Positions 31,236-63,314 of a stretch of DNA of 64,000 nucleotides are shown here, in pieces; position 1 is the stretch's first letter, and each line of letters opens with the position of its first letter. The stretch is from NCBI GenBank assembly GCA_009760855.2, contig WPIO01000184.1, positions 110,001 to 174,000 of the forward strand, given 5' to 3'. Made by a program: the position numbers and the translations under genes. The notes below the pieces were generated by a model that worked only from the letters and a program-made list of their open reading frames with translations, was not told the DNA's origin and ran no database searches. The stretch comes from Cristatella mucedo. Lineage: Eukaryota > Bryozoa > Phylactolaemata > Cristatellidae.

Positions 31236-31257
31236 TTATCTAATGTGCTTATATAAC

Positions 31258-33457
31258 GTAATCTAATGTATCTCCGTCTGTAACTCCACAAAGTCATAAA
31301 GACCATGTGAGTGTTACGCAGGAGAGTTGTGTATAGCACACTCATAGCATAAGCAGCTTTCGGTACACATTCGGTAGCCAACAGACTTCGTCTCACGCAA
31401 CAAAGAGAAACTGGGAAGCATAGCAGAGTCAGGAGAGCAGTCGAGGTAGTGAGTAGCATAGAAGTAGCAGCTCAGGACCGCTGAAAAAGATGTGCCATAG
31501 TCAGCAGTTGGAGAGTAGATGTCGTTGGGTAAGAATTGTGGAAGCGAGTTCCACAGTCTAGGACCTGCAGAGCTAAAGCTTCTGTCGCCAACTGTCTTTA
31601 AGCCGATGAATGGGACAGCTAAATTATTGTCCACACAGGACCTCAGGGCACGAACGGGCTGAAACTGGTGCAGCAGTTCAGCTAGGTACGAAGGAGCCAA
31701 GCCGTGGTGGGCCTTGTGGGTCAGCGTAAGAACTTTGCTCTGTATCCTTTGCTCAACCGGAAACCGTCCTAGCTCTTTCAGCAAAGGTGACACGTGCTCA
31801 AACCGCTGGGACTTGAAGACCAGCCTTGCAGCCATATTCATAGTCTGCTGTAGTGGCATAATGGCTTTCTTTGGCAGCCCAGCCAAAAGGGAATTATAAT
31901 AATCAAGCCGAGACAGAACTAAAGAGCTAGTTAAAATTTTTACAAGCCACTGTGGGAGACAGCTCCTAATCTTGGATAGGGATCGGATGTAATGGCTAGC
32001 TGTAGAGGTTCAGTTTCTCAGTTGCTGCAGCAGATTTTGACGGTTTAAAAGACAAATACAATTGAGTATCGTCAGCATAGAAGTGATATCCTATTCCATG
32101 GGCCTTAATCACTTTTCCCAGAGTTTGTGCATAAATGGAGAACAGCAAGGGACCAAGTACAGACCCTTGAGGGACTCCACAGGTGACCCTTCTCGTGTCT
32201 GAGACCTGACCCACACACGACACGGATTGAACACGATCAGACAAGTATGATTTAAACCACGCCAGTGCTTCGTCTGCCAGACCGATCGTTGTTCTCAATC
32301 GTTCAAGCAGAACTTCGTGATCAATGGTGTCGAAAGCAGCAGACAGATCTAGCAGAGCTAGGGCAGTGACATTCCTGTCGTCGTTGCCACGTAGAATGTC
32401 ATTGTTAACACGGAGGAGAGCAGTTTCAGTAGAGTGCTGCCTCTTGAAACCTGATTGAAATGTTTCTGACATTCCATTGTTTTCAATATGTTCAACTAGC
32501 TGCTTAGCAACAATTTTTTCAAGAATCTTTGATAAGAACGGAAGAAGGGAAACTGGACTATAGTTTGCTAGGACCTCTGTGTCTAATCCAGGCTTTTTAA
32601 GAATAGGTCTAACGATTGCCGATTTGAAGGACTTGGGGACGACCCCTTTTCCCAAAGAAGCATTAAAAACCTTGGTTATGGCAGGGCTAAGTTGGTCTGC
32701 TACTGAAGACCACAGAGATGAAGGTATAGGGTCTTCGGGAGACGAGCCCTTTATGCTAGACATTATTAATGTAGCCACATCACAGGCAGAAACATCGGAG
32801 AACCTTTTAAGAATGGTCACAGGTTGAGGAACGGCGATTGCTTTGGTCGGAGGGGGCTTAATGGGGGCACGAATGTGCACCATTTTTTCAGTAAAGAAGG
32901 CTGAAAACGTTTGGGCTGAGCCCTTAATATCTGGGGAGTCAGACCTCACAGCATAGGCCAGTAAATGGTTTACTGTCTTATAAATCTGTGTAGTGTCCGA
33001 CTGGCAGGAATTCAGCTTTCTAATGAAAAAAGAAGCCCTGGTTTGCTTAAGCTTGTGGATGTAAAATCGAAGGAAGTTCTTAAAATTGACTACGTCTGCC
33101 TCAGACCCCGATTTCTTGAAACGACGTTCTAGCCTGCACTCAACCCGGCGCATCTTAAGGAGTTTTTTGTAAATTGAAAGGAATCTCGACGACTTTGAAC
33201 ACGGATAGAGCGAACGGGAGCATGCACGTCAAGAGCACTCCTGAGTGTCATGTTCATCACATCAGTGAGGGTATCGAGATTGCCGGTCCAGACTGAATGC
33301 AGATCAAGAAGACTTGCATCACAAACAGATTTCAAAAACTTGTCCATGTCAATGCTTTGTAATGTACGTCGTTTGGCAAATTCAACATTGCCCTATACGT
33401 ACGAGGGAGCGGGAGCAGTAAACGAGACCGAACAATGATCTAAGAGGGTCAGTGGGC
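31258..33457 (-). mobile_element. LINE-2 retrotransposon, 2.2 kb, with intact RT core
   Basis: Longest LINE here. On the minus strand, from its 5' end: the last part of an endonuclease domain (LLDHCSVSFTAPAPS near 33440-33395), then linker (33347-33129), then a 385-codon frame 33153-31996. That frame carries RT fingers (SFKSAIVRPILKKPGLDTE), motif A LLDLSAAFDTIDH, motif B GVPQGSVLGP and the catalytic FYADDTQLY (about 32065-32085). A second frame, 31886-31314, gives the thumb and C-terminus. Sequence between NLYS and the thumb is missing compared with the copy at 8346, which breaks the frame near 32000. The tail is GGAGTTACAGACGGAGATAC. The element is 5'-truncated at 33457, so it is inactive, but the catalytic residues are intact. 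Confidence 0.85.
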
Positions 33458-33763
33458 ACTGATGTGCTGAAACAGCACGTGTTGTCTCTAACGTCGCTAG
33501 GTAAGATGGCCCACTTCAGTCAATTGCCAAGATGGCCTACTTTAGTCACTCAAACAATGGCATCTTTCGTGACGGAACTTGCTCGACCGAGCAAAGCAAG
33601 TCCACATTCAAATTGTTGCTCGTTAAGTAATAACGGTTATAGTTACGTGCAGTGCTTGTTTTTTTATATTCACTCTCTCCCTTGCCAACCTGTTTGTCGA
33701 GATGTAATCTTGGCTCTTCTGTATACTAGGATGAACGGCTGTGCTTAGAAGCACAGCTTAAGT

Positions 33764-33779
33764 CGCTTCTTGGTTTTTA
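33764..33779 (+). other. Splice-acceptor-like site upstream of ZNF A
   Basis: CTTCTTGGTTTTTAG lies about 40 bp before the shared start. The corresponding place in genes C and D has CTCGTTGCAG. The following exon start (TTTTGCAACATCAGCTC) aligns with the other paralogs up to the ATG. This suggests an upstream non-coding exon. Confidence 0.45.
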
Positions 33780-33818
33780 GTTTTGCAACATCAGCTCTAG
33801 GGAGCCACCTAGCTCAAA

Positions 33819-34841
33819 ATGCAGGAGCCTGTCACTCACCAAGCTCCTCAGCATGCCTGTGGGCAGTGCGGCAAGCTGTTCATGTTACAATGCCGCCTCA
33901 AGGCCCACGAGCTCACCCACGCGGACGAGAGACCTCACTGGTGCAACCTGTGCTCCAAGACGTTTCGCACTGCAGCACGCCTTAAGACTCACAAGCTCAT
34001 GCACACTGGCGAGAGGCCTCACGCATGCGACACGTGCAACAAGCGATTCACCTATGTCAGCCACCTGAGACGGCACGAGCGTTTGCATACGAAAAAGAAG
34101 CTGCATGCGTGCGACAAATGCACCAAGAAATTTACAGATGGCCTCAAGCTGCACCGACACCAGCTCTTGCACACTGATGAGACACAGCCAGCATGCTACG
34201 TTTGTGGAAAGGTGCTTGCTATATCTAGCAGCCTAAAGAACCACTTATATCCTCAATCGGCCGAGAAACCAAACCCTTGCGACCAGTGTCGCACGAGGCT
34301 CACAACGGTTGGCAAAAAGCACCAGCATGTGCATTCGAGGGAGAGGCCGCACCCGTGCGACCAGTGCAAAAAGCGGTTTAAAACCATCGGAAGCCTGCGG
34401 CAGCACGTGAGGGTGCACACGGGTGATTGGAAATACCGCTGTTATTCCTGCGGCAGACGATTTCACTACCTCTGCCGCCTGCGTCGGCACCAGATTCTCC
34501 ACACCAGCAAGATACCCCATGCATGAGACACGTGTGGCAAGCGCTTCACCGTTGCCAGCCACCTGAGCTGGCACTCACTTGTGCACACCAGCAAGAGACC
34601 TCATGCATGCGACATGTGTGGCAAGCACTTCATCGTTGCCAGCCACCTGCACCGGCACTCGCTCGTGCACACCGGTGGTGGCACACCGGAGGCTGCACGG
34701 ATTCGATGCGAGCAGCATGCTGTTTTGATACTTCAGCAGCCTGTACCTGCTTCAGTGCCGGCACACAGTCGAATAGCTCCACACCTGCGACTATACCCAC
34801 AAGCAGTACAGCATTCCGAGCAGCCTGGCTAAGAGCTAAGT
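33819..34841 (+). pseudogene. C2H2 zinc-finger gene A (degrading paralog)
   Basis: Starts at the family ATG-CAG-GAG (MQEPVTHQAPQHACGQCGK). An open frame of 235 codons (33819-34526) encodes eight finger units: 1-4, 7 and 8 are good C2H2 fingers. Unit 5 lacks its second His (LKNHLYPQS), and unit 6 is two residues short (GKKHQHVH). A TGA at 34524-34526 replaces the first Cys of the next finger. After it, in frame, are two nearly identical extra fingers (TCGKRFTVASHLSWH; MCGKHFIVASHLHRH) that copy B lacks. A short tandem insertion near 34670-34690 then shifts the frame. The last finger is cut by the 482-bp insertion. A protein of eight units could still be made; no effector domain is visible. If expressed it would be a nuclear DNA-binding protein. 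Its DNA-contact residues differ from B at +3 in every intact finger. Confidence 0.8.
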
Positions 34842-35315
34842 CAAAGTCACGGTTACTCTAGCAATATTCCACGAAGGTCGGCTTCTCTTCGTGTTGCTCA
34901 TGGTAAATTCGGTCTAGGTTAAGATTAATTCAGGTAAAAATTGAGAGATAGCCCTGCGGCTAGAAAAATTGAGATGATTAAGATTGAGATGCTTGAGATG
35001 ATGAGAAAAATTGAGATGATTGAGAGAACCGCCAAGCGGCTAGAAGGCTCTCGCCTCTCTCCAGCCAAGTAAATTGGTGACGGCCTTCATGTTTGAGAAG
35101 CCGAGGATTTCTAGAATAGTATTGAAGCCCACCTCGTTGATGCAACGGCTTTCAGTAATAAAGATGCAGATAGGACAGCTGGAATGACAGCTTCAAATAA
35201 TGCGAATCTGAACAATCTTCGAATCTGAACAATGCCGACTGAAATGTATTTGAGAGTGATTGCTTTACCGAAGGTGAGCATTGACACCTACAAGCCAGTT
35301 AGAATTGGTTTACTA
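34834..35315. mobile_element. 482-bp insertion in the last finger, copy A
   Basis: Flanked by AGCCTGGCTAAG (34822-34833) and AGCCGGCCAAGG (35316-35327), an imperfect duplication of one target. Genes C and D have a single uninterrupted CTGGCGAGGCACCG at the same codons. The insert has no ORF, terminal inverted repeat or poly-A that I can see. Its middle is rich in ATTGAGATGATT-like repeats. It ends the reading frame with AGC-TAA. The lack of GT at its start argues against an intron. Confidence 0.55.
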
Positions 35316-35760
35316 AGCCGGCCAAGGACAACCGGCACAATCATATCAATGACCAGGGGGCGAGCCAAGCGACTTGCAACAGCAGCTCAGCAGTGAATAG
35401 GTGCTCACGTGATGAGCGGTGCATGTGATTGGGCACGTGCGACGTCCACACTCAAGGCCTCTGAGCGATGCCTCTGTGCAAAGCCTATGAGCATTGGTCA
35501 CCTGACGCAGCATCGTGTGGTTTTCTCCAGCTGCCAATGCCACCTGTGAGTTAATGTGGGCAACGACCTGGTGCTCTCGTGCAAACACACCCTAGAAACG
35601 GAAGCTGTGACATGTGCACTCATCGGCAGCAGTGCTGCTGCACAAAGATTCGTTAGGTTTTGATCTCTTGAGGTAGAAGCACCTTGCACAAGCTGGCTCT
35701 GCTGGAAGAGTAGTTGGCCTCACCGTGGCCACTTTTATCTGCTCCTGGCCATCAGCTAGC
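35316..35760 (+). pseudogene. Detached 3' end of ZNF A and conserved 3' flank
   Basis: Right after the insertion the sequence resumes the last finger and tail. GACAACCGGCACAATCAT corresponds to the RHRRNH codons of gene D, GACCAG to DQ, and CAACAGCAGCTCAGCAGTGA to QQQLSSE. The similarity to the 3' side of gene D (62180 back to about 61885, minus strand) continues for 300 bp beyond the stop. The small minus-strand frames here are not conserved in gene D. Confidence 0.65.
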
Positions 35761-35889
35761 TCTCTGCTGTGCTAGGGCAGAACTTGACTGACATGCCTAT
35801 AGTAATGCTTCGCTATATCTGTCGTAATATGCATACTAAGCTCTTCCAGATTGGCAATTATGCATAGCGCAACTGCAGAAATACACATT

Positions 35890-36044
35890 TAAGATTGCTA
35901 AGTACTCCTGGTTCATTATATTTACATTGCACACATTGCAAAGGGACATATGTCTCTAAGAGCAAGGTTCTTATGCTGACCCACAAGGCCTGCCACGGCT
36001 TAATGCTAATAATAATAATTTCAATACATATATATATATATATG

Positions 36045-36112
<68 letters not shown>

Positions 36113-36640
36113 GTATATGTGTCTAGCATCCCAAGAAAACCTAATCTCTATTCAGGGCTCCTAGGATCTACTCCCCCACCAGGACAAGCATCGTACCACC
36201 TGCTTTTCGGAATCCAAAAGTTGACCAATACCTCATATGAACCTCAAATCCTTTGCAGACCTTGCATTTAGTGTGTATGCTCCCAAAGCCTGGAACTCCT
36301 CTTGACTTGCATCAGAACATCCCCTGACTTGACCACATTTAAAAAGAACTTACATACACCTCTTTAGGACAACATTTAATAGGTCCCTGTGAATCGTCGT
36401 TCATGTGCTTATGAGTGCTCACACTGAGCATGCACACTAACCACACTTGCATCCTGACCCTGTCCATCTCACATCCTGATCCTGTCCATGGCATCCTGAC
36501 CGTGTCCATGTGTTGTTTATCAAACATGATATTACTCACCATTAAATAGCGTTTCCCTTTGCAGCAAATGAAAAGCACCTTGAAAAGAGATTGAGTTCTC
36601 TGAGGGTGCTCTATCAAGTGCAATACTATTATTCACATAT
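35890..36640 (+). mobile_element. LINE-2 scrap, (TA)n, then L2-1 3' end
   Basis: 35960-36005 (CTGACCCACAAGGCCTGCCA) is a short LINE-2 piece encoding LTHKACHGL. A long (TA)n runs 36018-36110. From 36120 the L2-1 ORF end follows (CTCCCCCACCAGGACAAGCA, then THLFRTA-type codons), then the 3' UTR and CAATACTATTATT at 36633. Confidence 0.75.
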
Positions 36641-36725
36641 GCTTCAGGGCTGGAGTCCACGACCTCAGCCAGACCTTGGTCGGGGCGAGCATCTTAACCG
36701 CTGGACCAAACCCAAGTAGTGGCCA
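36641..36725 (-). mobile_element. SINE-2 head fragment
   Basis: Minus strand: GGTCCAGCGGTTAAGATGCTC (A-box region), then GGTCTGGCTGAGGTCGTGG and ACTCCAGCCC (B-box region). Its own tail is missing. The head joins directly to the L2-1 tail, whose sequence resembles the SINE-2 tail. Confidence 0.6.
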
Positions 36726-37334
36726 AACCGAGTGCCCCCCTAATCACGTTGTTGCTACAGGTGACATGCTCTGCTTTCCATTTACGGTGCATGATTTTCA
36801 GAAGACAGTTTATTGTATTTCGCTACAATTGAGTTGCACTTTCTACGCAATACACTGTCATTAGCAACTGCTCCGGCAAATACAGCAGTCCATTCTTGTC
36901 CAGGCTCGTCCTCATGCTGTGGCCTTAAACGGCCCGGGCCAGCCAATTCTTTGAATATATTTTAACAGCAATTCAGCTGCATCACAAAAATGCTTTGCTT
37001 AACTGTTGTTTTTCCTAATTAGAGAAAATAATATGCCAAGTTAATCCACCTTATTTTATGACATCATGCTTGTGCTTGCTCCTACTATGGCCTCCAATGG
37101 CCCTACCAAAACGTCAGCCCAAGCAATTTGAACTGCAATAAAGATGCGATTATCGAATTAGCATTGCACAACTGCGGTTTTCATTTTAAATGATGGGATT
37201 TCATATTCTGGCTAACTCAACAAATATCATGGCGTTTTTCAAAAATCCAAAATGCTGGTCTAAAATGTGCATTAAAAACTTCATTTTAACAAACCTAACC
37301 AAGGAAATGGCAGCTGTATCCCAGTATGCATGAT
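36726..37334. other. Unassigned stretch
   Basis: AT-rich, no feature recognised. Confidence 0.35.
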
Positions 37335-37620
37335 TAGGGATGCCTGCCGCCCCGATGGTTGTATGCCTTATCCTTTCTTTGTGTGCTGCTTATGAATGCT
37401 GACACCGAGCGAGCTGCCATATGACTGCCACTGACTATGTTCGCATGATGACTCTGTGCATTTCACTTCTAAAAATGATGTGCGTGTTTTCATAGAGCTT
37501 GCTGCCACTAACCATACGGTCTTGCTTCCTGTGCAGCAAATTTAAAATGCATAGAAATATAATGAGTTATCTGCGAGTGCTCTAAAAATGTACTAATATT
37601 ATTATTATTATTATTATAAG
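37335..37620 (+). mobile_element. Diverged L2-1 3' end
   Basis: Shared order of 3' UTR blocks (GTGTGCTGCTTATGAATGCTG, TGCCACTGACTATGTT, CAGCAAATTTAAAATGCATAG) followed by (ATT)n at about 37595-37617. An old copy. Confidence 0.6.
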
Positions 37621-37802
37621 TTAAGCTTTGACAGAATTCGTGGTGCATGACAGCTATGGCCTAACTCTCACTTTTGCTCTGTAAAGCCGATACCAGATAA
37701 AATTGGTGGTACATATTTTTCTACGGCCTAAGCAGAGGTCTTGCAGCTTTAAGGATATTTATTTTGTACGTATTTTTCACCCGCAAAGAGATTTCCCCAA
37801 GT

Positions 37803-37945
37803 TAATAATAATAATAATAATAATAATGCACTTGATAAAGTGCCCTCTGAGAACTTAATCTCTCTCTAGGCCCTTTACATTTGCTGCAAAGGGAAATGCA
37901 ATTAAAGGGTGAGTAAAATCATGCTTGATAAACAAAAGCAAAGTT
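37803..37945 (-). mobile_element. L2-1 tail-only copy
   Basis: (AAT)n, then GCACTTGATAAAGTGCCCTC, AACTTAATCTCTCTCTAGGC and ATTTGCTGCAAAGGGAAATG. A truncated minus-strand end. Confidence 0.8.
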
Positions 37946-38045
37946 GAATTTTTCAACAAAAACATTAAAAACGATAGGCAACCCTAAGCTTCAACTGACT
38001 GCACATAACAGTTGTACTGCTATTTTCAATGAAATCATTTCAATG

Positions 38046-38215
38046 CCCTGATTTGGCCAAGGTTATAAGGTGCTAGCCTTTGATGACCGAGGTCAAGGTG
38101 AATGCATTTGGTGACTGAGGTCATGGATTTACATCCCGGGGCTTACTTGAAGCGAATAGATAGAAAATAAGTTCTTTAAGGGCACAATAAATGTAATTCA
38201 TGTATTGCATGATTA
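38046..38215 (+). mobile_element. SINE-2 (tRNA head plus LINE-like tail)
   Basis: A-box region GGCCAAGGTTATAAGGTGCTAGCC. The middle (GATGACCGAGGTCA / GGTGACTGAGGTCA) appears twice, so the head is partly duplicated. The B-box region is diverged. The tail is TTGAAGCGAATAGATAGAAA, then ATAAGTTCTTTAAGGGCACA and ATAAATGTAATTC, matching the other SINE-2 copies. Confidence 0.55.
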
Positions 38216-38264
38216 ATAAATGTTAACTATGTAATTATTTAATATAAAGTGAAGGTATATAAAT

Positions 38265-38350
38265 AACTATAATTATAACACACTTGATAAAGCTCCCTCA
38301 GAGAACTCAATCTCTTTCTAGGTGCTTCACGTTGGCTGCAAAGGAAACAC
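38265..38350 (-). mobile_element. L2-1 tail-only copy
   Basis: ACTTGATAAAGCTCCCTCAG, AACTCAATCTCTTTCTAGG and TGCTTCACGTTGGCTGCAAA on the minus strand. Confidence 0.7.
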
Positions 38351-38509
38351 GATCGACTGCTTAATTAAATAAAATATATAAATAACTGTGATTACAGCCG
38401 TTTTCGCTTTCCTGTCACTTTACAAAAGTAACATTTGAATCATTGCAGAGAAAATGATGTCGTTTAAGCCTAGTATCACATGAGTTTCTACGAAGGACGC
38501 TGGGCTCAT

Positions 38510-38967
38510 AGCAGGCTGTTCAGCATGGTCACCAGCCTCTGCTCAGGCTCGCGTTAAAAGAACACTTTCAAGAGCTCATAATAAATATTTCATTTACCTC
38601 AGGTCATGTCCCAGCATCTTTCAAAAAGGCTTTAGTCAGGCCACTACTCAAGAAATCAACACTACACCAAGATAACTTGAGCGACTTCCGCCCAGTCTTC
38701 TCTCTACCGTTCCTATCAAAGACAGTAGAACGAGTCATGGCAGACCAGTTGAACTCATATATTGAAATTTCAAGCCTTGGTAGTAAGTTTCAAGCTGTTT
38801 AGAGCCTATCACTCCTCAGAGTCAGCATTAGTTCGAGTATATTATGAGTTACCTAGGAATGCAGACTCAGATCGAGTATCTCCGCTTGTTTAACTTGACG
38901 TTTTGGCAGATTTCTACACAATCGATCACCGAGTCCTTGAGCGCCTCTCATCTCGTCTGAGCGTCAC
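38510..38967 (+). pseudogene. L2-1 reverse transcriptase N-terminal fragment
   Basis: Readable with breaks: SGHVPASFKKALVRPLLKKS, then DFRPVFSLPFLSKTVERVMA, DQLNSYIEISS, then motif A remnants before the DNA changes to a tRNA-like repeat. It covers the RT fingers region that the 17.4-kb copy lacks. It has many stops. Confidence 0.7.
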
Positions 38968-39195
38968 TGGTGAGCCACAGTGGCACAGTGAGTAAGGCGG
39001 TTGCTTTTCACGACCTCGGTCCCGAGGTCATGAAGAGAGGTTCTCCCAACTCGCTTTACGGCTTGGCTTCCAGGCGTCGTGGTTCCATAAATTCTCGCAA
39101 GTTGAGCTGTGCGAGCAGCCTCGCGCACTCGAGAACGAGCCAGCGATGGCTGCCGACAGGCTACCCTCACGCGCTACGCTATAAAGGAAAATGAA
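38968..39195 (+). mobile_element. Possible tRNA-like SINE
   Basis: Starts like other SINE heads (CACAGTGGCACAGTGAGTAA) and contains CACGACCTCGGTCCCGAGGTC. The B box is not clear. It interrupts the L2-1 RT fragment, as an insertion would. Confidence 0.4.
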
Positions 39196-39409
39196 CAGGT
39201 GGACTGCGGAAGCGGATAAAGTAGGGCACGTGACCTGGAAGCACGGTCAGTGTGAGCTGTGCCGGTCTTTTTTCCAAACAAAAGGCTCGCTAATAAAAAA
39301 TAAAAATAATTTTAATCAGACAATTATATAGCACCCTCAGATGACTAAATCTCTTAATATACACTATTCAAATGCTGAAAAAGTCATGCTAATATCGCTA
39401 ATGATAACT

Positions 39410-39800
39410 TGCATAACACTCCTTTGGAAACCGGGTCTCTAGCCGGTATGCTCCCAAAGCCTGAACTCACTTCCAACTTGCATCCCGACCTCCTGACTTA
39501 ACCATGCTTAAAATAAAAATAAAAAAGCCTCAATTTATCAAAGCTATTGGTGGGTTCCTGTGATTAGACTTTTATGTGTTTATCCGTTCGGGCACTGTGG
39601 GTGCTGCCACTAACAATACTTGTGTGCTGTGCCTTTGCATTTCAATCCTAACCACGTGACTCTTGCTGCTTATGGAGCATGCTTCCACTAAACCATTCGA
39701 TCGTACTTTTTTGCAGCCAACGAAAAGCGCCTAGAAAGACATTGAAATCTTTGAGGTTACTATATTAAATTTATTGTTATTATTATTATTAAGTCAATCG
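39410..39800 (+). mobile_element. L2-1 3' end, diverged
   Basis: ORF-end codons (GTATGCTCCCAAAGCCTGAA), 3' UTR blocks, AAAGCGCCTAGAAAGACATTG and an ATT tail. Confidence 0.65.
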
Positions 39801-39999
39801 AGTATGGAACTCGTAGAACTGTGGCACCATATGAGAAACTTCTAATGATGAGGTGGGGGTCAGCTAATCCTGCACATTTTCAACTAGAACGGCATCTTTT
39901 TCTTATATTGAGTTAGGTCAGTCGGCCATGGATACTGTGCCAATGTGACCCAGGCAACATTTTTGCTGGCATCTGGACCCGCAAAAATTAGCATAAAAT

Positions 40000-41860
40000 T
40001 TAATGGGGAGTTAAGACCTAAGGAGCTATTTTTTTATGGACTGGTTTTGTTTGAGAGGAACAATAGAAGTGAGACTGGGCGGAAGCTGCTAAAGTTCAAT
40101 TGATCTAGTGTTGCTTTCTTGAGTAGTGGCCTTATTCCACCCTCTGTGAAGGGTGCTGAGAAAAGACCTGACGTTAATGACAGATTCACAATGTCAATTA
40201 TGCACGGGAGTAGCAGATCTATTCACTGTCAAAATAGGACAGTGGGAATAAGACCAAAGGATTAGTTGACTTCTATGACTGGGATGTAAACGTTCACGAG
40301 GCTACTACTGGCCTCCTTGAAAGTAGACATTGAGGTTAGGTATGGAATTGAGGGACTGGATTCCTGAGGAATTCTTCTGCCGTAGTAATGGACTCCCTGA
40401 TCTTGTCTATCTTCTAGACATAAAAGACAGAGAAGCGATAAGCTAGATCATAATATGGATCTCTAGGTAATGAGCTTACCTAGGAGCAGTTAAGGAGATT
40501 GTTTGTCGTCGATATCAGCATTTTTTAATTGTGCATCTGTGATTCAACAATGTTTTTATAGAAACTAGACTTGGGCTTTGATAGGATTGGTACGATCTAC
40601 AGTAGTCCTGATATGCCACTTGGTGGACAGTCAATCAAATCTTCTGTTTGCTTTTTTACGTATCCGCTTAGTCCCCCGGGCAAGTTTAATGTCTGTGGTA
40701 AACTAAACTCTGTTTGGACTAGGGCGCACAATGCGCTTAGTCAGAGGTGCAAACTCATCGATCATGTCACTTAATAACGTGTTCTATCAATCTACCAATG
40801 ATGACAAGTTAAACGGAGGATTGAGCAGCAGCAGAGTTGAAGCAGATATTCTAGCATGGATAGCAGCGATGCCAAGGGTTTTAAGGTTTGGCGATTCACC
40901 TGATTATACATCAGGAGGAGGAGGACACATATTGCAGACTGAATGAGATCAGCATGTGCCTAGAAAAGCAGAACTTGTTAAGAATTGGTGATAATAAATT
41001 GCAGTTGTATGAGGAAACTGGTTGAGTGTGTGAACTTTGATGTGCCTAGGGCAGTGCCCATGTGCCGCAAGAGACAATGAATCAATCAATGCATGAAATT
41101 CATAGCTGGAGGCATCAGATAAGTTATCAAAATGAATAATAGTGAGAAAGTATGATTAAATGCGAGCAGATTCGAAACAAGGTCAGAGAAATCGTAGATA
41201 AACGGGAACTTGATACCTGATGGGCGATAGACTACTGCCACCATTGATAACTTGTTATAGGATGAAATCAAGACAATAGATTTGAGAAAGTGCTTCAAGA
41301 GTACTGCAAACGGTTTGAAATTGATATTTGAGCGGGATATTAAGGATGCCACCTCGAGTCGCGATTGGTCTAGTAGGGGTGTGGAAGAAGGAGAAGCTAG
41401 TCGGGGCTGCTTCATTAATTGTCGGACAATTTACAGATTTTAGCCAAGCTTCACTCAAGGCGACCAGATCAAGACTTCTTTTAAATGTAATGTCGCTTAG
41501 TAATAGGTTTTATTGGACATTGTAACATTGAGCGAGGATTCTAAAAAAACAAGCGTTTAGTCGGGCCACCGGAGTTAAAACGGGCTTGTAGACTACCAAG
41601 TTAGAGGAATTAACAGTATCGCTAGAGGAAGAACATGCTGAGTGGTTCGAGACCATGCTAGGATCATAAAGCGAACTCAGCTCGAAGCGTCTACTGAACG
41701 AGCTGTGTCCCGCCCACTGCCCTGGCTCGGCGTCGTTTCCAGGGGGTGCCTTTTTTAATGCGTAATTCGTGGATGTTAGCAGCAGCAATGACATCTAGGA
41801 ATGCATTTGAACTACGATAACGAAACGGCGAAAGGTATGTACGATCATAACGAATATGGA
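40000..41860 (-). pseudogene. L2/CR1-type LINE, endonuclease and RT N-terminal region, broken
   Basis: From its 5' side (41860) toward 40000 the minus strand shows KPVLTPVARLNACFFRILAQ. It then has LVALSEAWLKS, the beta-strand block typical of LINE endonucleases. Next is SFSFFHTPTRPIATRGGILN, then MVAVVYRPSGIKFPFIYDFS, the VYRPPG block of apurinic-type endonucleases. RT-entry sequence follows at 40190-40000 (GIRPLLKKATLDQLN-like). Stops and frame changes break it. It is the only copy here with the endonuclease N-terminal half. Parts at 40270-41080 are poorly readable. Confidence 0.65.
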
Positions 41861-43189
41861 GGTAATTAGCCGTTGGCTGGCCTAATGCTGCCTCCGTCGT
41901 GGCAGATCCAGCCAGAAGTGATAAGGCTTTAGATGTTTATAGGCACGTCGTCGCTACGTCGCTACGATCAAACAACGAAGAGATAATACTAAAAAGGTTA
42001 TCGATGCATCTTTTCTGTATAAGATATTCGCAAGAGCTTGGTTTTCCTGTGAAAAGTTTGGCAAATAACAAGAGACGCTTGTAAAGCTAGGTGTCGGGAG
42101 GCGAGCCAACCTTTCTCCGGACAAAAGATTTGCTCTACCAGTGAGTTACTGGGATTACCGACTTCTGCGGGTAATGCAGCAATTGCCTCGCTTACAATCT
42201 CATCCTATGCTCGGTATGCATTCCAGATATTTTATTGTAGGACGAGTGCACCCCGTCCCGTTGTCGCTTAAGCCCAGCCGCGCCAAATTTTTGCTGCATG
42301 TGTACTGCTGGAATAAGAACTCTGTGACCGTACCTCTCAACCATAGCAAGGGGCTGTGACCAAAATAGTTGGTACTATAAACGCTGCCCTGGCTATCGCA
42401 TGCTTCAGACGGGCTGCGGTACTGACATCAAGATCACTTCAATATCTAGACTGGATGATGAGATATTAGAAATGAGAAGGTACATTAGCCTACGAAACCC
42501 TGCCATGTCGGAGCAATGGGGCTACCAGCCACTACAGATGCCTTAACACGGACCACGTCTTCTGATTCTGAAATGGCATCCAGGCCGCACAGCGTATGCC
42601 TCACCCAGGTCAGCCAGGCTAGCTTCATTATCTGGTCACCAAGCTGCCCAGGGTGCAGACCACGAAGGGACTTGCCAATGCCGTCCGGTAGCAACCCGTC
42701 ATGAGAGACCGGGCTACTACCTCGTATTTATCAACCTTTTTCCGGGCTACCACCACCAAGACATACTCACTACCGTCAAACTGCACCGTTCATCGACAAT
42801 GACCGCATCGGTGCTGTTGTCGATGACCAGGTCCGGATTTAGAGCAGTGTGTCACCCACGTTCAGTTCCATGTGTTATGTTGCCATCCACTGCCAAACCA
42901 CTTCCTAATCAGGCTTGATACCGTGCCATCTGCTCGTCTACCTCAAATCATTTTACTGTGCCTTGAACCAATCTCATTTTCTCTGCGGGATTCTTCTTTA
43001 ATTGTGTAGGTTCTTAAAGCTCGAAACTCACTACCGACTGGCATCAAACCGAGTTGATCAAGTTGCCGACATTGAAGCTGTAGCTGAATCCCCATCAAAT
43101 TATCACATCATTTTCCAGGTATTTGCAAATTACGATAATAACACGTGTGCAGCTATACGCTTATAGGTTTTTGCAAGGTCTTAAAGTTT
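41861..43189. other. Mostly unassigned, with degenerate L2-like pieces
   Basis: 42110-42180 (TCTCCGGAC-AAAGA...GTTACTGGGATTAC) repeats at 55190-55250, an unknown short repeat. 42860-43060 resembles a decayed L2-1 ORF end. No gene recognised. Confidence 0.4.
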
Positions 43190-43400
43190 CAAATCGAACG
43201 TCGTGTAGCCAATTGACACACTCTATAAATGTCCTCAAAAACTAAGTCTCTTTCTAGGCCCTTTACATATGCCGAAAAGGAAACACGAGCTAATGGTAAG
43301 TGGTCGTAGGCTCGACAAGCAACAAGAATAACATGGCTAGGAATAAATTGAATAAATTGGCTAGGGGTTACATGCACAGGGTCAGCATGCAAGAATCATG
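43190..43400 (-). mobile_element. L2-1 3' end
   Basis: AACTAAGTCTCTTTCTAGGC, CCTTTACATATGCCGAAAAG and GGGGTTACATGCACAGGGTC on the minus strand. It joins repeat X directly. Confidence 0.7.
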
Positions 43401-43404
43401 ATTT

Positions 43405-43748
43405 GTAGCTCACTGGGCTCGCCGGCACTCTGCCGGTGCAGGTAGACCAGTAGTGCTACAAACCAACCAAGGGTCGAACAGCTGGTGGATGTGGCCCAGG
43501 TGCCGGCCGATGCTCAGCTGTGGTCTGGTGGCCATGGTTTGGGCACAGGCCAGCTTTGTCTTCCCTCTAACTCATTGGAACGATTTGTGGCAGGGGCTGT
43601 GTGAAGTAAAGTTTAAACACCGGCCAAGGAGTAAACGGCTGCCTTTGGGGAGCTCTGTAGGTGCCTACAAAAATACACGTTATTGTGAACCAGCTTCAGT
43701 GTTGTGCCTGCTCTTGCCAACGTGCTCTCGGGAGAGCATTATTCTATG
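43405..43748 (+). repeat. Unknown repeat X, copy 2
   Basis: Collinear with 29893-30252 and ends at the same GGGAGAGCATTATTCTATG point. An open frame (43453-43962) crosses from this repeat into a LINE-2 end, so it is a chance fusion. Confidence 0.6.
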
Positions 43749-43749
43749 C

Positions 43750-44012
43750 AACGACAACTACTCTCCAACTGCCGACTATGGCACATCTTTTTCAGCGGTT
43801 CTGAACTGCTACTTCTATGCTACTCACTACCTCAACTGCTCTCCTGACTCTGCTATGCTTCCCACTTTTTCAGTGTTGCGTGAGACGAAGTCTGTTGGCT
43901 ACCGAATGCGTACCGAAAGCCGCTTAGGTTGTGGGTGCACTACACAAAACTCTCCTGCATAACACCCACGTGGTCTTTATGACTTTGTGGAGTTACTGAC
44001 GGAGATACAGTC
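43750..44012 (+). mobile_element. LINE-2 3' end
   Basis: Encodes ADYGTSFSAVLNCYFYATHY, then LRETKSVGYRMRTESRLGCG, and ends in GTGGAGTTACTGACGGAGATAC. It separates repeat X from the rearranged L2-1 block. At 30.25 kb the same junction has no LINE-2, so this insertion is specific to this copy. Confidence 0.75.
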
Positions 44013-44029
44013 ACTAATCAGTAGCATGT

Positions 44030-45475
44030 ACAGGACAAGTCACAAGGACCCACTAAATGCTATCATATCTAAGTGGGTTTTTTAAGTTCGTTTTTAAGTG
44101 TGGTCAAGTCAGAAAATGTCGTGACGGAAGTTGAGAGTGAGTTTCGGGCTTTGAGGGATTTCGAGAAAATTTTTATTTATGCAGCGGTCAAAGTATTATT
44201 CATGGATTTATTGCGTTTTAACATAGGGATACAGCATCTAAATTGGTCTATGTATTTGTGACATCCCACCTTGAATTCTGTCTTTCCTGCTTTCAGATCT
44301 ACCTGCCTGTATACTCAGTAACTAGACTTCTGTAACTCACCACTTGCTGGCCGATGTGATTGACCAGCACAATCTCGGCTTTCACTTTTAAGCCGATGAC
44401 AATTAGCTTTATCTTAGCTTTGATCCCTCGTAGCCGTCCAGCAGGTCGAATTCCCTCAACTCCCTAGCTGCATGTATTGGCACCATCTGCACATGTATGG
44501 CAGAAAATTTTCTTAAATTTAATTTAAATAAAACCAACTTACTAGTTATGAGCAAACACAATGTAATTCAGAAATTGAAAAGGTCAACGCTCAAAATCAG
44601 CTCTTCCATTATTCTGTTGAATGTGCACGAAATGTAGGCATCATGTCTCAAAGTGACCTTTCTTTGGACGACCAAATCAGCTTCACGATCAAGTCTGCCT
44701 ACTTTCAGCTACATAAAATTGCTAAAATGTGGGCTTGTTTTTTTAGACAGGAATACATAATCTAAATTGATCCATGCATTTATGACACCTTGTCTCGACT
44801 TTTGTAACTCGCGGCTTTCAGGCCTACAGGCCAGTGCAATCAGCACTCACAGGTGGTGCAAAACTCTGCAGCTAGGCTTGTCTGTCGTGAGTGTCGAAGT
44901 TGTTACATCACACCACTTCTCGCCGTCCAGCACTGGCTGCTATTCAAGTAACACATCGACTTCAAGGTTGCGGCACTCAATTGTAGGTCCCTTCATTCTT
45001 TTGCTCCAGCTGTTAGATCTACTCCCCCACCAGGCCAGGCATCGTTCCACCTGCTTTTCAAAATCTAACTCTTATACTATACCTCGTACAAGCCTCAAAA
45101 ATCCTTCGGAGACCATTTATTTCGTACGCTCTCAAAGTCCGGAACTCACTCCCGACCTGCATCACGACATCTCTTCACCTGTCCACAATAAAAAGTATCT
45201 CAAAACGCACCTACTGATGGCAGCATGTTGATGCTGCTTGTAATTCGTCCTTTATGTGCTCAAGCGAACTGACACTGCTGCATGCTGCCACTAACAACAC
45301 TTGCATCCTGACCCCGTGCATGTCGCCCCAACATGTTTTTTTTGTTGTTTATTAAGCATGCTACCCCTAACCGCTTGATCTTTCTTATTTGTAGCTATTT
45401 CAAAATGCCTACAAAGAGATTGAGTTTTCTGAGAGCGCCCTATATTAATTATATTAATGTTTTTATTACTGGCCT
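44030..45475. pseudogene. Rearranged L2-1 fragments (copy 2 of a duplicated block)
   Basis: Same scrambled order as 30265-31235: a minus-strand ORF end (44030-44215), then plus-strand RT and thumb pieces. It continues further, to the plus-strand ORF end (SNSYTIPRTSL at about 45080) and a 3' UTR ending near 45470. It is not readable as one frame. Confidence 0.65.
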
Positions 45476-45544
45476 GTGCCATCAGGCACTTACAGCTAGT
45501 GTAAAACCCTGTGACTAGGCTTATATACAATTCATTAATTTGTA

Positions 45545-46155
45545 TTTAATTCATTTGAGAGGCTTGTCTCTTGTGAGTGTTGAAGTTGCCACATCACACC
45601 ACTTCACACCGTCCAGCACTGGCTGCTATTCAAGTAACACATCGACTTCAAGGTTGCGGCACTCAATTGTAGGTCCCTTCATTCTTTTGCTCCAGCCAAA
45701 CTATTAGATCTACTCGTCCACCAGGTTAAGCATCGCTTTCCGGAATATAATTGTTTGCCCATATCTTGTACAAATCTCAAACAGTTTGGCGACCGTTCCT
45801 GTAGTTTGTATGCTCCTAAAGCCTGGAACTCACCCCTCCCGACTTGTGTCACGAACTCTCCTGACTGGTCCACATTTAAAAAGGAGCTAAGCCCGCATCT
45901 ATTCATCACGGTATTTATCGAGTTCCTTGATTCGTCATTTATGTGCTTATGCCTGCTGACTATGCATGCTAAAACTAAGTGTGCTTGCATGCTGACCCTG
46001 TGTGTGTCACCCCTAACCATGTTTTCCCGTTGTTTATTCGGCATACTATCACATTCGATCGTGCTTCCTTTGCAGCAAATCTAAATGACGTAGAAATAGA
46101 TTTAATTATCTGAGGGCACTATAATAAGTTTATTATTATTATTATTATTATCAAA
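45545..46155 (+). mobile_element. L2-1 fragments and 3' end
   Basis: 45560-45690 is a third copy of the thumb piece (CCGTCCAGCACTGGCTGCTA). 45700-46155 is a diverged ORF end (PISCTNLKQFGDRSCSLYA) with 3' UTR and (ATT)n. Confidence 0.75.
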
Positions 46156-46526
46156 TGTGCTTATATGTACTGATGTGCTGAAACAACACGTGTTGTCTCT
46201 AACGTCGCTAGGTGAGATGGCCCACTTCAGTCAATTGCCAAGATGGCACACTTTAGTCACTCAAAAATGGCATCTTTCGTGACGGATTTTGCTCGACCGA
46301 GCAGAGCAAGTCCTCATTCAAATTGTTGCTCCTAAAGTAATAATGGTTATAGTCATGTGCAGTGCTTGCTTTTTATATTCACTCTCTCCCTTGCCAACCT
46401 GTTTGTCCAGATGTAATCTTGGCTCTTCTGCATACCAAGATGTCCGGCTGTGCTTAGAAGCAGAGCTTTGGTCACTTCGTGGTTTTAGTTTTGCAACATC
46501 AGCTCTAGGGAGCCACCGAGCTCCGA

Positions 46527-47375
46527 ATGCAGGAGCCCGTTGCTCACCAAGCTCCTCAGCATGCCTGCGGGCAGTGCGGCAAGCTGTTCATGTATCGATG
46601 CCATCTCAAGGCCCACGAGCTCACCCATACTGACGAGAGACCTCACTCGTGCGACCTGTGCTCCAAGACGTTCCGCACTGCCACTCACCTTAAGACTCAC
46701 AAGCTCACGCACACTGGCGAGAGGCCTCACACATGCAACACGTGCACCAAGCGATTCACCAATGTCAGCAACCTGCGACGGCACATGCGTTTGCATGCTG
46801 GCGAGAAGCTGCACGCCTGCGACAAATGCAGCAAGAAATTTACAGATGGCCTCGAGCTGCACCGACAACAGCTCTTGCACACTGATGAGACACAGCAGGC
46901 ATGCTCCATTTGTGGAAAGGTGCTCGCTATATCTAGCAGCCTAAAGAATCACTTATATCCTCAATCGGCCGAGAAACCACACCCTTGTGACCAGTGTGGC
47001 AATAGGTTCACCACGGTCGGCAAAGGGCACCAGCATGTGCACTCGGGGGAGAAGCCGCACCCATGCGACCAGTGCAAAAAGCGGTTTAAAACCATCGGAC
47101 GCCTGCGGCAGCACATGAAGGTGCACACGGGTGATTGGAAATACCACTGTGATGCGTGCGGCAGACGATTTCGCTACCTCTGCCACCACCGTCGGCACCA
47201 GTTTCTCCACACCGGTGAGAGGCCGCACGGATTCGACACGAGCGACATGCTGCTTCGCGACTTCAGCAGGCTGTGCCTGCACCAGTGCCGGCACTTGCAG
47301 ACATTCGAGAAGCTCCACACCTGCGACTATACCCACAAGCAGTACAGCATTCCGAGCAGCCTGGCTAAGAGCTAA
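46527..47375 (+). CDS. C2H2 zinc-finger protein B
   Basis: 282-codon open frame from the family start (MQEPVAHQAPQHACGQCGK). Finger units begin at residues 14, 42, 70, 98, 126, 154, 180, 208, 236 and 266. Units 1, 2, 3, 7 and 8 are complete C2H2 fingers with HTGERPHxC-type linkers. Unit 4 has Gln for the first zinc His (LHRQQLLH), unit 5 lacks the second His, unit 6 is two residues short and unit 9 has lost both Cys. Unit 10 has one Cys and stops at SLAKS because of the 482-bp insertion. No N-terminal effector domain. Likely a nuclear DNA-binding protein with five reliable fingers. The frame has stayed open despite decayed fingers. It could equally be an early pseudogene. Confidence 0.7.
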   Translation: MQEPVAHQAPQHACGQCGKLFMYRCHLKAHELTHTDERPHSCDLCSKTFRTATHLKTHKLTHTGERPHTCNTCTKRFTNVSNLRRHMRLHAGEKLHACDKCSKKFTDGLELHRQQLLHTDETQQACSICGKVLAISSSLKNHLYPQSAEKPHPCDQCGNRFTTVGKGHQHVHSGEKPHPCDQCKKRFKTIGRLRQHMKVHTGDWKYHCDACGRRFRYLCHHRRHQFLHTGERPHGFDTSDMLLRDFSRLCLHQCRHLQTFEKLHTCDYTHKQYSIPSSLAKS

Positions 47376-47851
47376 GTCAAAGTCACGGTTACTCTAGCAA
47401 TATTCCACGAAGGTCGGCTTCTCTTCGTGTTGTTCATGCTAATATCGGTCTAGGTTAAGATCAATTCAGGTAAAAATTGAGAGATAGCCCTGCGGCTAGA
47501 AAAATTGAGATGATTAAGATTGAGATGATTGAGATGATGAGAAAAATTGAGATGATTGAGAGAACCGCCAAGCGGCTAGAAGGCTCTCGCCTCTCTCCAG
47601 CCAAGTAAATTGGTGACGGCCTTAATGTTTGAGAAGCCGAGGATTTCTAGAATAGCATTGAAGCCCACCTCGTTGATGCAACGGCTTTCAGTGATAAAGA
47701 TGCAGACAGGACAGCTGGAATGACAGCTTCAAATAATGCGAATCTGAACAATCTTCGAATCTGAACAATGCCGACTGAAATGTATTTGAGAGTGATTGCT
47801 TTACCGAAGGTGAGCATTGACACCTACAAGCCAGTTAGAATTGGTTTACTA
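47370..47851. mobile_element. 482-bp insertion in the last finger, copy B
   Basis: Same length and position as in copy A, flanked by AGCCTGGCTAAG (47358-47369) and AGCCGGCCAAGG (47852-47863). It differs from copy A at about ten positions by hand count. The insertion therefore came before the block duplication. Confidence 0.55.
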
Positions 47852-58482: not shown

Positions 58483-59649
58483 ATGCAGGAGCCCATCGCC
58501 TGCCGAGTTCCTCAGCATGCCTGCGGCCAGTGTGGCAAGCTGTTTACAACCGTGAGAAGCCTGTACGACCACCAGCGCTGGTCGCACCCTGGCAGGAAGC
58601 CGCATGCATGCGACCAGTGCGCTAAGACGTTCCTAGTCGCCACTCACCTAAAGAGGCACTTGCTCACTCACACTGGCGAGAGGCCTCACTCGTGCCACTC
58701 GTGCAGCAGATGCTTTGCCGATGTTGGCAACCTGCGTCGGCACGAAGGTATGCACGCGGCCGAGAAGCCGCACCCTTGCGACATGTGCGGCAAGCGGTTC
58801 GCAACGGTCGGTAACTTGCACCAGCACCAACGCCTGCACACAGGCGAGAGGCCTCACGCGTGCGACCAGTGCGACAAGCGATTTATAACCGTCTTCCACC
58901 TACAGCGGCACGAGCAATCGCACGCAGGAAAGAGGCCACACGTGTGCAATGAGTGCGGCAAGCAGTTTCTAGATGCTTACGGCCTGCGCCGACACATGCA
59001 CGTGCACACGGCCGGCGGGCCGCTGCCGTGCGACATTTGCGGCAAGCGATTTATTGATGCAATAGCAGTGCAGCTGCACCTGCTTGTGCACACGGGCGAG
59101 AGGCCGTACCCTTGCGACTTGTGCGGCATGCAATTTCTCACACTCGGCAGCCTGCGTCGGCACCGGTTCGTGCACACGGACGAGAGGCCGCAGGCGTGCG
59201 ACACGTGTGGCAAGCGCTTCACCGATGCCAGCAACCTGCGTCGGCACGCGCTCGTGCACACGGACGAGAGGCCGCACGCTTGCAACTCGTGCGGCATGCG
59301 GTTTTCCCGGCTCAGCAGTCTGCGCATGCACCAGAGCAGGCACGTGGGCAGGAGGCCTCATGCCTGTGACGAGTGCAGCAAGGCGTTTTGTACCGTTGGC
59401 GAACTGCGCAAGCACCAGGTCATACACACGGGCGAGAGGCCTCATGCATGTGACGTGTGCGGCAAGCGGTTTGGCCACGTGAACAGTCTTCGTCGGCATC
59501 GGGGCCTGCACACGGTTGAGAAGCCGTACAAGTGTGTCACGTGTGACAAGCGATACAGCGACCGGAGCTACCTGGCGAGGCACCGTTGCAATCACGTAGG
59601 CGATCAGAAGGCTGACGCACTCTCGGCAGCTGGAGCAGCTCAGCAGTAA
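58483..59649 (+). CDS. C2H2 zinc-finger protein C, 13 fingers
   Basis: 388-codon open frame, start MQEPIACRVPQHACGQCGK shared with A, B and D. Thirteen fingers begin at Cys residues 14, 43, then every 28 residues to 351. All have both Cys and both His. Finger 1 has one extra residue between its His residues. Linkers are mostly HTGERPHAC or HTDERPxAC, the type that packs tandem fingers on DNA. Helix residues (-1/+3/+6) for fingers 2 to 13 read V/H/R, D/N/R, T/N/Q, T/H/R, D/G/R, D/A/L, T/S/R, D/N/R, R/S/M, T/E/K, H/S/R and D/Y/A. The tail is short and Ala/Gln-rich (ALSAAGAAQQ). No KRAB, BTB, SCAN or SET domain in this exon; an upstream coding exon cannot be excluded but a TGA precedes the ATG in frame. 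Probably a nuclear sequence-specific DNA-binding protein. Confidence 0.9.
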   Translation: MQEPIACRVPQHACGQCGKLFTTVRSLYDHQRWSHPGRKPHACDQCAKTFLVATHLKRHLLTHTGERPHSCHSCSRCFADVGNLRRHEGMHAAEKPHPCDMCGKRFATVGNLHQHQRLHTGERPHACDQCDKRFITVFHLQRHEQSHAGKRPHVCNECGKQFLDAYGLRRHMHVHTAGGPLPCDICGKRFIDAIAVQLHLLVHTGERPYPCDLCGMQFLTLGSLRRHRFVHTDERPQACDTCGKRFTDASNLRRHALVHTDERPHACNSCGMRFSRLSSLRMHQSRHVGRRPHACDECSKAFCTVGELRKHQVIHTGERPHACDVCGKRFGHVNSLRRHRGLHTVEKPYKCVTCDKRYSDRSYLARHRCNHVGDQKADALSAAGAAQQ

Positions 59650-62180: not shown

Positions 62181-63314
62181 TCACGTGATAGCCTCTTCAC
62201 TGCTGAGCTGCTGCTGCTGTGAGTCGCTTGTAGCCTGGTCATAGACGTGATTACGCCGGTGCCTCGCCAGGTTGCCCGAACTGCTGTACCGCTTGCTGCA
62301 ATAGTCACACGTGTACAGCTTCTCGTTCGTGTGAAAGCCCTGGTGCGTGCGCAGGTTAGATGCCTTGAAAAACTGCTTGCCGCACGTCCCACATGCATAT
62401 GGACTCTTGCCTATGTGTATGAACTGGTGGTTGTGCAACTCGCCAAGGTTACGAAACCGCTGGCCACACTCGAGACATTCGTGCACCTTCTCGCCCGTGT
62501 GCACAAGCTGATGCAGGCGAAGAGCGCTTAGTCGACCGAAATGCATTCCACACGTGTTGCAAGCGTGCGGCCTCTCGCCCGTGTGCACGCGGTCGTGCCG
62601 GCGCAGGTCGCTGGCACTGATAAAGCACTTGCCGCACTCCTCACACGCCTGCGGCCTCTCGTCCGTGTGCACAAACTGGTGCCGCCGCAGGTGGCCAAGA
62701 GTAAGAAATCGCATGCCACACGCATCGCAAGGGTGCGGCCTCTCGTCCGTGTGCACGAGCATGTGCTGCCTCAATCCCTTGACATCGATAAATCGCTTGC
62801 TGCAAGTGTCGCATGACAGCGGCCTCTCGCCCGTGTGCATGTGCATGTGTCGGCGCAGGTCGCAGGCTTCTATAAACCGCATGCTGCAATGGTCGCAAGC
62901 ATGCGGCCTCTCGTTCGTGTGAGCTTGCTTGTGCCGCTGAAGGTGAGCAGCGGTTACAAACCGCTTGTCGCACGTGTCACAAGGGTGAGGCCTCTCGCCG
63001 GTGTGTGTGAGCATGTGCCTCTTAAGGTGACTGGGGGTGCGGAACACCTTTCCGCACTGGTCGCAGGCCTGCAGCCTCTCGCCCGTGTGCATGCGCTGGT
63101 GCAAACGCAAGTAGGTGACAGTTAAAAACCGCTTGCCGCACTGGTCGCACGAGTGCGGCCTGTCACCTGTGTGCGTGAGTTCGTGGACCTTGAGGTTTCT
63201 CCGCCGCGTGAACAGCTTGCCACACTGGCCGCAGGGATGCTGTGGACGAGCGACGGACTCCTGCATCATGTCAGCTCGGCGCCTCCCTGGAGCTGCCATT
63301 GCAGCAGCGCTCAT
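62181..63314 (-). CDS. C2H2 zinc-finger protein D, 12 fingers
   Basis: 377-codon minus-strand frame. The longest version starts MSAAAMAAPGRRRADMMQES. The family start corresponds to the Met at 63266 or 63269 (MMQESVARPQHPCGQCGK). Twelve complete fingers begin at residue 28 and every 28 residues to 336. Fingers 4-12 align one-to-one with fingers 5-13 of C, including FLTLG-LRRH followed by VHTDERPQAC, so D has one finger fewer near its start. Helix residues (-1/+3/+6) for fingers 1 to 12: R/N/V, T/Y/L, T/H/R, T/H/R, E/D/R, D/G/Q, T/H/R, S/D/R, R/A/L, N/E/N, K/N/T and S/N/A. The tail has QQQQ and acidic residues and ends AIT. The frame stays open back to the splice-acceptor-like site, so a coding upstream exon is possible here. 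No effector domain seen. Confidence 0.9.
   Translation of the reverse strand: MSAAAMAAPGRRRADMMQESVARPQHPCGQCGKLFTRRRNLKVHELTHTGDRPHSCDQCGKRFLTVTYLRLHQRMHTGERLQACDQCGKVFRTPSHLKRHMLTHTGERPHPCDTCDKRFVTAAHLQRHKQAHTNERPHACDHCSMRFIEACDLRRHMHMHTGERPLSCDTCSKRFIDVKGLRQHMLVHTDERPHPCDACGMRFLTLGHLRRHQFVHTDERPQACEECGKCFISASDLRRHDRVHTGERPHACNTCGMHFGRLSALRLHQLVHTGEKVHECLECGQRFRNLGELHNHQFIHIGKSPYACGTCGKQFFKASNLRTHQGFHTNEKLYTCDYCSKRYSSSGNLARHRRNHVYDQATSDSQQQQLSSEEAIT

What the first reader, a model, noticed from the sequence alone, without database searches (positions are those of the whole stretch)
33819..47375. Duplicated zinc-finger genes A and B differ at DNA-contact position +3 in every intact shared finger
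Hand alignment of A (33819-34526) and B (46527-47235) shows about 45 differences in 235 residues. The helix position +3 differs in all six fingers that are well formed: finger 1 R/H, 2 R/H, 3 H/N, 4 K/E, 7 S/R, 8 R/H (finger 4 of B has since lost a ligand). Only one zinc ligand differs among the shared fingers (His to Gln in finger 4 of B). Synonymous changes appear fewer than replacement changes. Known for tandem C2H2 proteins: residues -1, +3 and +6 set base specificity, and diversifying selection at these positions is the hallmark of KRAB-ZNFs and PRDM9. Inference: the ancestors of A and B were under selection to change target, possibly against the retrotransposons around them.
Basis: partly seen in the sequence, partly recalled or inferred. 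Interest (0 to 1): 0.72.

Follow-up and report, generated by a model that had tools for sequence, protein, structure and literature searches.

The report
Zinc-finger twins with altered DNA contacts
Two neighbouring, partly decayed copies of a zinc-finger gene in an animal genome kept the parts that hold zinc but changed the main DNA-touching residue in every well-formed finger, a known way for such genes to acquire new targets.

Summary
A (33819-34526) and B (46527-47375) are tandem segmental duplicates of a multi-finger C2H2 gene; helix position +3 differs in 6 of 6 well-formed shared fingers (6 of 8 with the two broken ones). Neutral simulations with CpG-biased mutation reach 6 of 6 in at most 0.5% of runs. 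The other contacts are not enriched in the raw pair (-1 2/8, +2 1/8, +6 0/8) and whole-gene dN/dS is 0.50-0.73. With a decayed third copy (E) and five further relatives as outgroups, two +3 changes are firmly on the A branch, a third well supported, one leans A, one is ambiguous, one leans B. On the A branch contact omega is about 3 against 0.4-0.7 elsewhere (differs p=0.0009-0.0025; above 1 only p=0.05-0.11). Pooled over 15 other gene pairs of this genome, contact omega is 1.26 (1.02-1.54), zinc core 0.04. So contact sites were released or pushed to change while the fold was kept: ordinary for poly-zinc-finger clusters. Both copies now look decayed. No test here ties the change to the retrotransposons nearby.

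The parts
33819..34526 (+). Gene copy A: 235-codon poly-C2H2 ORF, 6 well-formed fingers (1-4, 7, 8) and 2 broken ones (5, 6)
46527..47375 (+). Gene copy B: 282-codon poly-C2H2 ORF, tandem segmental duplicate of A; His ligand of finger 4 is Gln, core Leu of finger 8 is His
33894..33896 (+). A finger 1 position +3 codon (Arg; B 46602-46604 His); polarity ambiguous
33978..33980 (+). A finger 2 position +3 codon (Arg; B 46686-46688 His); derived in A
34062..34064 (+). A finger 3 position +3 codon (His; B 46770-46772 Asn); leans derived in A
34146..34148 (+). A finger 4 position +3 codon (Lys; B 46854-46856 Glu); derivation in A well supported, a CpG transition
34392..34394 (+). A finger 7 position +3 codon (Ser; B 47100-47102 Arg); leans derived in B
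34476..34478 (+). A finger 8 position +3 codon (Arg; B 47184-47186 His); derived in A, since related genes F and C140 have CAC there
34524..34526 (+). TGA stop of A at the first-Cys position of a ninth finger; two readable finger segments follow in frame
34511..34688 (+). About 178 bases with extra finger segments in A, absent from B (edges uncertain by some tens of bases); partly a tandem copy (34474-34589 vs 34558-34673, 82%)
34779..35994 (.). Tract 98.8% identical to the B side, flanked by about 90% identity on both sides: gene-conversion tract
34834..35319 (.). About 0.49 kb insert that splits the family's last finger from its tail (B: 47370-47855); low-copy in the genome
33458..33818 (.). 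5' flank shared with B (7.8% divergence) and with outgroup copy E; used as non-coding yardstick
58483..59649 (+). Gene C: relative with an open 388-codon frame, 13 fingers
62181..63314 (-). Gene D: relative with an open 377-codon frame, 12 fingers

Best explanation
A and B are the two copies of a tandem segmental duplication inside a cluster of poly-C2H2 zinc-finger genes (finger arrays in single open frames) in an animal genome. After the split the zinc-holding skeleton and the reading frame stayed under constraint while the base-contacting helix residues, +3 above all, changed, mostly in A. That is how such arrays acquire new DNA targets: the fold is kept and the contact residues are rewritten. 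Shown: the duplication, the +3 differences, the contact-site bias on the A branch and in the pooled family, the conserved zinc core, the lesions. Inferred: that the proteins bound DNA, that specificity changed, and that selection favoured the change rather than tolerated it. Both copies look past their working life now.
For: +3 differs in 6/6 well-formed fingers, at most 0.5% of CpG-aware neutral runs. With E as outgroup (5' flank quartets AB|EF 13 against 4 and 0; coding tree 85% ultrafast bootstrap) contact codons on A changed in 7/16 against 10/122 elsewhere, on B in 0/16; omega at A-branch contacts 2.2-3.6. Core residues of the six well-formed fingers: 2 of 36 changed where simulation expects 5-7 (P=0.01-0.07), both in B. 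No indel in 694 aligned ORF bases against 11 in 2,020 bases outside it (p=0.07; p=0.024 against the 5' flank alone). Fifteen disjoint gene pairs (69 fingers): contact omega 1.26 (1.02-1.54), other 0.72, core 0.04. No donor for the finger-1 or finger-2 helix of A in the genome within 3 mismatches.
Against: Whole-gene omega 0.50-0.73; -1 and +6 not enriched in the raw pair; omega above 1 at A contacts only p=0.05-0.11, 0.26 without the +3 codons; finger 1 polarity ambiguous, finger 3 only leans A, finger 4 is a CpG transition and C183 and C share A's first base there; A carries more family-atypical residues than B, linkers included (26 against 12), which suggests relaxed constraint; A-to-B branch contrast relative to the flank only p=0.13. 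The finding was selected for being striking.
Confidence: 0.62

Rival explanations
1. Relaxed constraint only: after duplication A became (nearly) free to drift; exposed contact residues change at the neutral rate while B and the core lag, and the +3 run is luck.
For: A has the family-atypical residue in 26 and B in 12 of 45 differences in the finger region, 7 undecided; A changed several linker residues and has a TGA in a finger; contact omega above 1 not significant on A (p=0.05-0.11, 0.26 without the +3 codons); non-contact A replacements (10/122) fit a neutral rate.
Against: The 5' flank shows 3.1% A-branch change (11 of 357), so 7 of 16 contact codons replaced is several times the neutral expectation; the two core changes in well-formed fingers are in B, not A; the pooled family contact omega has its lower bound at 1.02.
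Confidence: 0.27
2. Mutation bias: +3 is often coded CGC/CAC, and CpG transitions alone flip Arg and His there.
For: CpG transitions at 23 of 61 CpG sites against 7% differing elsewhere; three of the six +3 differences are CGC against CAC or CAT; finger 4 is a CpG transition on A; finger 1 may be parallel CpG loss in B and E.
Against: CpG-aware simulation still gives 6 of 6 in at most 0.5% of runs; fingers 2 and 8 are CAC to CGC on A, a CpG gained: B and the six relatives E, F, C140, C183, C and D have CAC in finger 2, F and C140 in finger 8.
Confidence: 0.05
3. Gene conversion from other zinc-finger paralogues swapped helix segments into A.
For: Changes in A cluster within helices 1 and 2; a 1.2 kb conversion tract joins A and B just downstream.
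Against: The 24-base helices 1 and 2 of A were found only in A genome-wide with up to 3 mismatches; no donor better than B or E for five of six segments among the fetched loci, and for helix 8 the better match (F) lacks A's +3 codon; nothing listed in the genome is closer to A's first 282 bases than B.
Confidence: 0.06

Closest known systems
Lineage-specific poly-zinc-finger expansions (Emerson and Thomas 2009, PMC2604467; passages and section 9 seen)
   Same: Recent paralogues, replacements concentrated at base-contact positions, gain and loss of fingers, some gene conversion
   Different: There -1, 3 and 6 stand out in sets of 9-33 genes (seven of nine species sets in the passage significant, the two insects not); here one pair, +3 only in the raw pair, borderline omega; no KRAB found in the four ORFs scanned
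Metazoan ZNF-transposon co-evolution and FiNZ-ZNFs of cyprinids (Wells et al. 2023, PMC10547256; passages seen)
   Same: Many ZNF open frames in an animal genome with retroelements nearby; base-contact residues among the most variable
   Different: No binding prediction, expression or knock-down here; a FiNZ domain was not looked for; species of the window unknown
Mouse KZFP clusters with pseudogenes and related units (PMC5363842; passages seen)
   Same: Duplicates in clusters, members with stops, emergence and decay of contact-residue signatures
   Different: No KRAB domain detected in A, B, C or D

Membership tests
poly-C2H2 zinc-finger genes | tandem C2H2 fingers with 28-residue period | tested here: met
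   Pfam zf-C2H2 and zf-H2C2_2 in A, B, C, D; finger scan
poly-C2H2 zinc-finger genes | clustered duplicates with base-contact positions more variable than the rest of the finger | tested here: met
   at least 152 matches to gene C in the genome, several on the same contig; 15 disjoint pairs pooled, contact odds ratio 1.88, p=9e-5
poly-C2H2 zinc-finger genes under positive selection at contacts | omega above 1 at contact codons | tested here: inconclusive
   A branch p=0.05-0.11, 0.26 without the +3 codons; family pool 1.26, 1.02-1.54
KRAB-ZNF | KRAB domain | tested here: not met
   no KRAB hit in the four ORFs (exons elsewhere not sought); a genome-wide search found none but its controls were silent too, so it says nothing
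PRDM9 | PR/SET domain with the finger array | tested here: not met
   no SET hit in the four ORFs; exons elsewhere were not sought
transposon-repressing ZNF | binds and silences transposons | not testable with these tools
   no binding or expression data

The most novel reading that the evidence does not exclude
Copy A was re-aimed in one burst by selection: contacts in most fingers were rewritten, +3 toward basic residues (4 of 6 Arg/Lys in A, against 29 of 422 in the other sampled fingers), giving a short-lived DNA-binding protein with a new target, after which it decayed. This would be target turnover without KRAB, seen in passing, in an animal outside the usual models.
Probability: 0.2. 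Interest if true: 0.5.

Novelty: new member of a known kind. Interest (0 to 1): 0.32.

Why it matters
It adds a polarised, single-duplication example, in an unnamed 572 Mb genome and in ORFs without a detectable KRAB, of base contacts changing while the zinc fold is kept, followed by decay. The general principle is published; the value is as a test case and as a sign that this genome's ZNF clusters deserve a full selection scan.

Tried and rejected
Rejected or weakened: whole-gene positive selection (omega 0.50-0.73); joint -1/+3/+6 enrichment in the raw pair (8/24, P=0.12); CpG bias as the full cause; donors of A's helix segments; E grouping with B rather than outside A+B. The typicality-based polarity and the three-sequence polarity (+3 of fingers 1-4 all on A) were toned down once five more relatives were added: finger 1 is ambiguous, finger 3 only leans A, finger 4 is well supported but C183 and C share A's first base.

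The insert is low-copy (6 matches, two of them A and B themselves), so I could not name it. Rows dropped: 138 of 141 codons were compared and two replacements stayed unresolved; searches used only fingers of canonical spacing and pairs of 78-98.5% identity, 77 and 81 each locus once; A-B is left out of the pooled figures quoted. The loci were the best matches in hand, not a random sample. One search failed (missing module) and was redone.
Full report
What is there. The window is bases 110001-174000 of contig 93 of an unnamed 572,011,866-base genome in 688 contigs. It holds four related C2H2 genes: A (33819-34526), B (46527-47375), C (58483-59649) and D (62181-63314, minus strand). A and B lie in a tandem segmental duplication; homologous blocks run from 33458-36426 to 46169-48891, with further repeat-rich blocks upstream (29897-31234 to 43397-44996) that may be copies of elements rather than part of the same event. 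At least 152 places in the genome match gene C and at least 254 match B, some with stops inside; several of the best lie on the same contig.

The observation. A and B align over 235 codons without a gap, with 46 residue and 79 base differences. With the core Leu as +4, position +3 differs in fingers 1, 2, 3, 4, 7 and 8 and agrees in the malformed fingers 5 and 6. Against an even spread this is P=0.0016 (6 of 8) or 8e-5 (6 of 6). CpG sites mutate faster than others here (23 of 61 CpG sites differ by transition; 7% of other sites differ), so I simulated neutral evolution with that bias: P(6 or more of 8) was 0.000-0.0125 and 0.006-0.019; P(6 of 6) was at most 0.005. The excess is real but modest, and it is one position chosen after seeing the data. 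The other contact positions show none in the raw pair: -1 2/8, +2 1/8, +6 0/8.

dN/dS. NG86 gives dN 0.101-0.110, dS 0.152-0.202, omega 0.50-0.73 by kappa, bootstrap 0.39-0.98 at kappa 2. ORF divergence (10.7%) is close to that of the flanks (7.8% and 7.9%; 9.5% and 12.1% in the upstream blocks). So most of the ORF evolves not far from neutrally, but not evenly: core residues of the well-formed fingers changed in 2 of 36 places where simulation expects 5-7 (P=0.01-0.07), and both changes are departures in B.

Polarity. A third copy, E (contig 93, 50504-50926 minus, decayed with four TGA), shares the 5' flank and fingers 1-4. Quartets in the 5' flank place it outside A+B (13 sites against 4 and 0 with F; 14 against 3 and 1 with locus L022), and the coding tree agrees (85% ultrafast bootstrap). 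With E alone, 17 replacements fall on A and 7 on B in 138 codons; contact codons changed on A in 7 of 16 against 10 of 122 others (P=7e-4), on B in none of 16. The +3 changes of fingers 1-4 then all fall on A. More relatives temper this: finger 2 is firm (B and six of six relatives have CAC); finger 4 is well supported (G in B, E, F, C140 and D; A's base also in C183 and C; a CpG transition); finger 3 leans A; finger 1 is ambiguous, because four relatives have AGC, one AAC, and B and E may both have lost a CpG. Finger 8 is firm from F and C140. Finger 7 leans B (Ser is typical, Arg rare).

Models. A three-sequence codon model (A, B, E; stops in E as missing data) gives omega 2.2-3.6 at A-branch contact codons against 0.4-0.7 elsewhere. 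The difference is significant (p=0.0009-0.0025; 0.005 without the two unclear +3 codons; 0.03 without all four), but omega above 1 is not (p=0.054-0.075; 0.11; 0.26). On the A branch coding sites changed at twice the flank rate (26/414 against 11/357, p=0.043), on B not (15/414 against 15/357); the A-B contrast itself is p=0.13.

Family check. Among 15 disjoint gene pairs from the loci I fetched (69 fingers, A-B left out), pooled contact positions differ more than other non-core finger positions (96/276 against 182/759, odds ratio 1.88, p=9e-5; +3 26/69, +2 28/69, -1 20/69, +6 22/69; -1 and +6 alone are not significant). Pooled omega: contacts 1.26 (1.02-1.54), +3 alone 1.25 (0.87-1.70), other 0.72, core 0.04. 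In the C-D pair +3 differs in 9 of 11 aligned fingers. So contact turnover is a feature of this family. A-B has the highest +3 fraction among listed pairs of at least 0.83 identity; some pairs near 0.80 also reach 4/4 or 5/5. These loci were the best matches in hand, not a random sample.

Other explanations. Micro-conversion: A's helices 1 and 2 have no match within 3 mismatches elsewhere in the genome, and no convincing donor appears in the fetched loci. CpG bias: fingers 2 and 8 gained a CpG on A, the wrong direction. Relaxation of A is a serious rival: A has the family-atypical residue in 26 differences and B in 12, 7 undecided, and four of A's six +3 residues are Arg or Lys, which make 29 of 422 in the other fingers.

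Decay. The odd finger 5 is shared by both copies and by the open frame on contig 183, so it predates the duplication; finger 6 is malformed in both. A has a TGA where the ninth finger's first Cys would be (34524) with readable finger segments behind it; B lost a His ligand and a core Leu. In both, an insert of about 0.49 kb (34834-35319 in A) parts the last finger from the family's tail, still recognisable downstream. The insert lies in a tract (34779-35994) only 1.2% diverged between about 10% on either side (log-likelihood gain 56 for two breaks), while the part of that tract that aligns with D is only 73% identical to it: a gene-conversion tract rather than constraint. No indel broke the 694 aligned ORF bases (11 in 2,020 bases outside, p=0.07), which fits a working life after the duplication.

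What is known. Emerson and Thomas 2009 (PMC2604467; passages and section 9 seen) report positive selection at -1, 3 and 6 in poly-ZF expansions of several vertebrates; Wells et al. 2023 (PMC10547256; passages seen) tie ZNF and retroelement numbers across animals and find contact residues among the most variable. The case here is one more member of that kind. No call supports the step from changed contacts to the retrotransposons around the genes.

Noticed in passing
34779-35994 and B counterpart to about 48520: Gene-conversion tract of about 1.2 kb, 98.8% identical between flanks of about 90%
   Followed up: yes
L020 (contig 183, 24720-25976 minus): A relative with an open frame of 454 codons that shares the odd fifth finger of A and B
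   Followed up: partly
L010 (contig 93, 50504-50926 minus): Copy E has four in-frame TGA, three of them where A and B have Cys codons
   Followed up: partly
about 33788, between 5' leader and ATG of A (and B): A and B lack about 0.2 kb of leader that E has, whose end is shared with F, C140, C183 and D, so A/B probably lost it
   Followed up: no
L009 and L014; L066 and L069; L065 and L067; L054 and L055: Nearly identical ZNF arrays at separate places of the genome, apparently very recent duplicates
   Followed up: no
18208-19023 and 31996-33153: Reverse-transcriptase ORFs (Pfam RVT_1) near the genes; other LINE-like fragments around 29489-31886, 43453-46084 and 56899-57339 were recognised by eye only
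   Followed up: no
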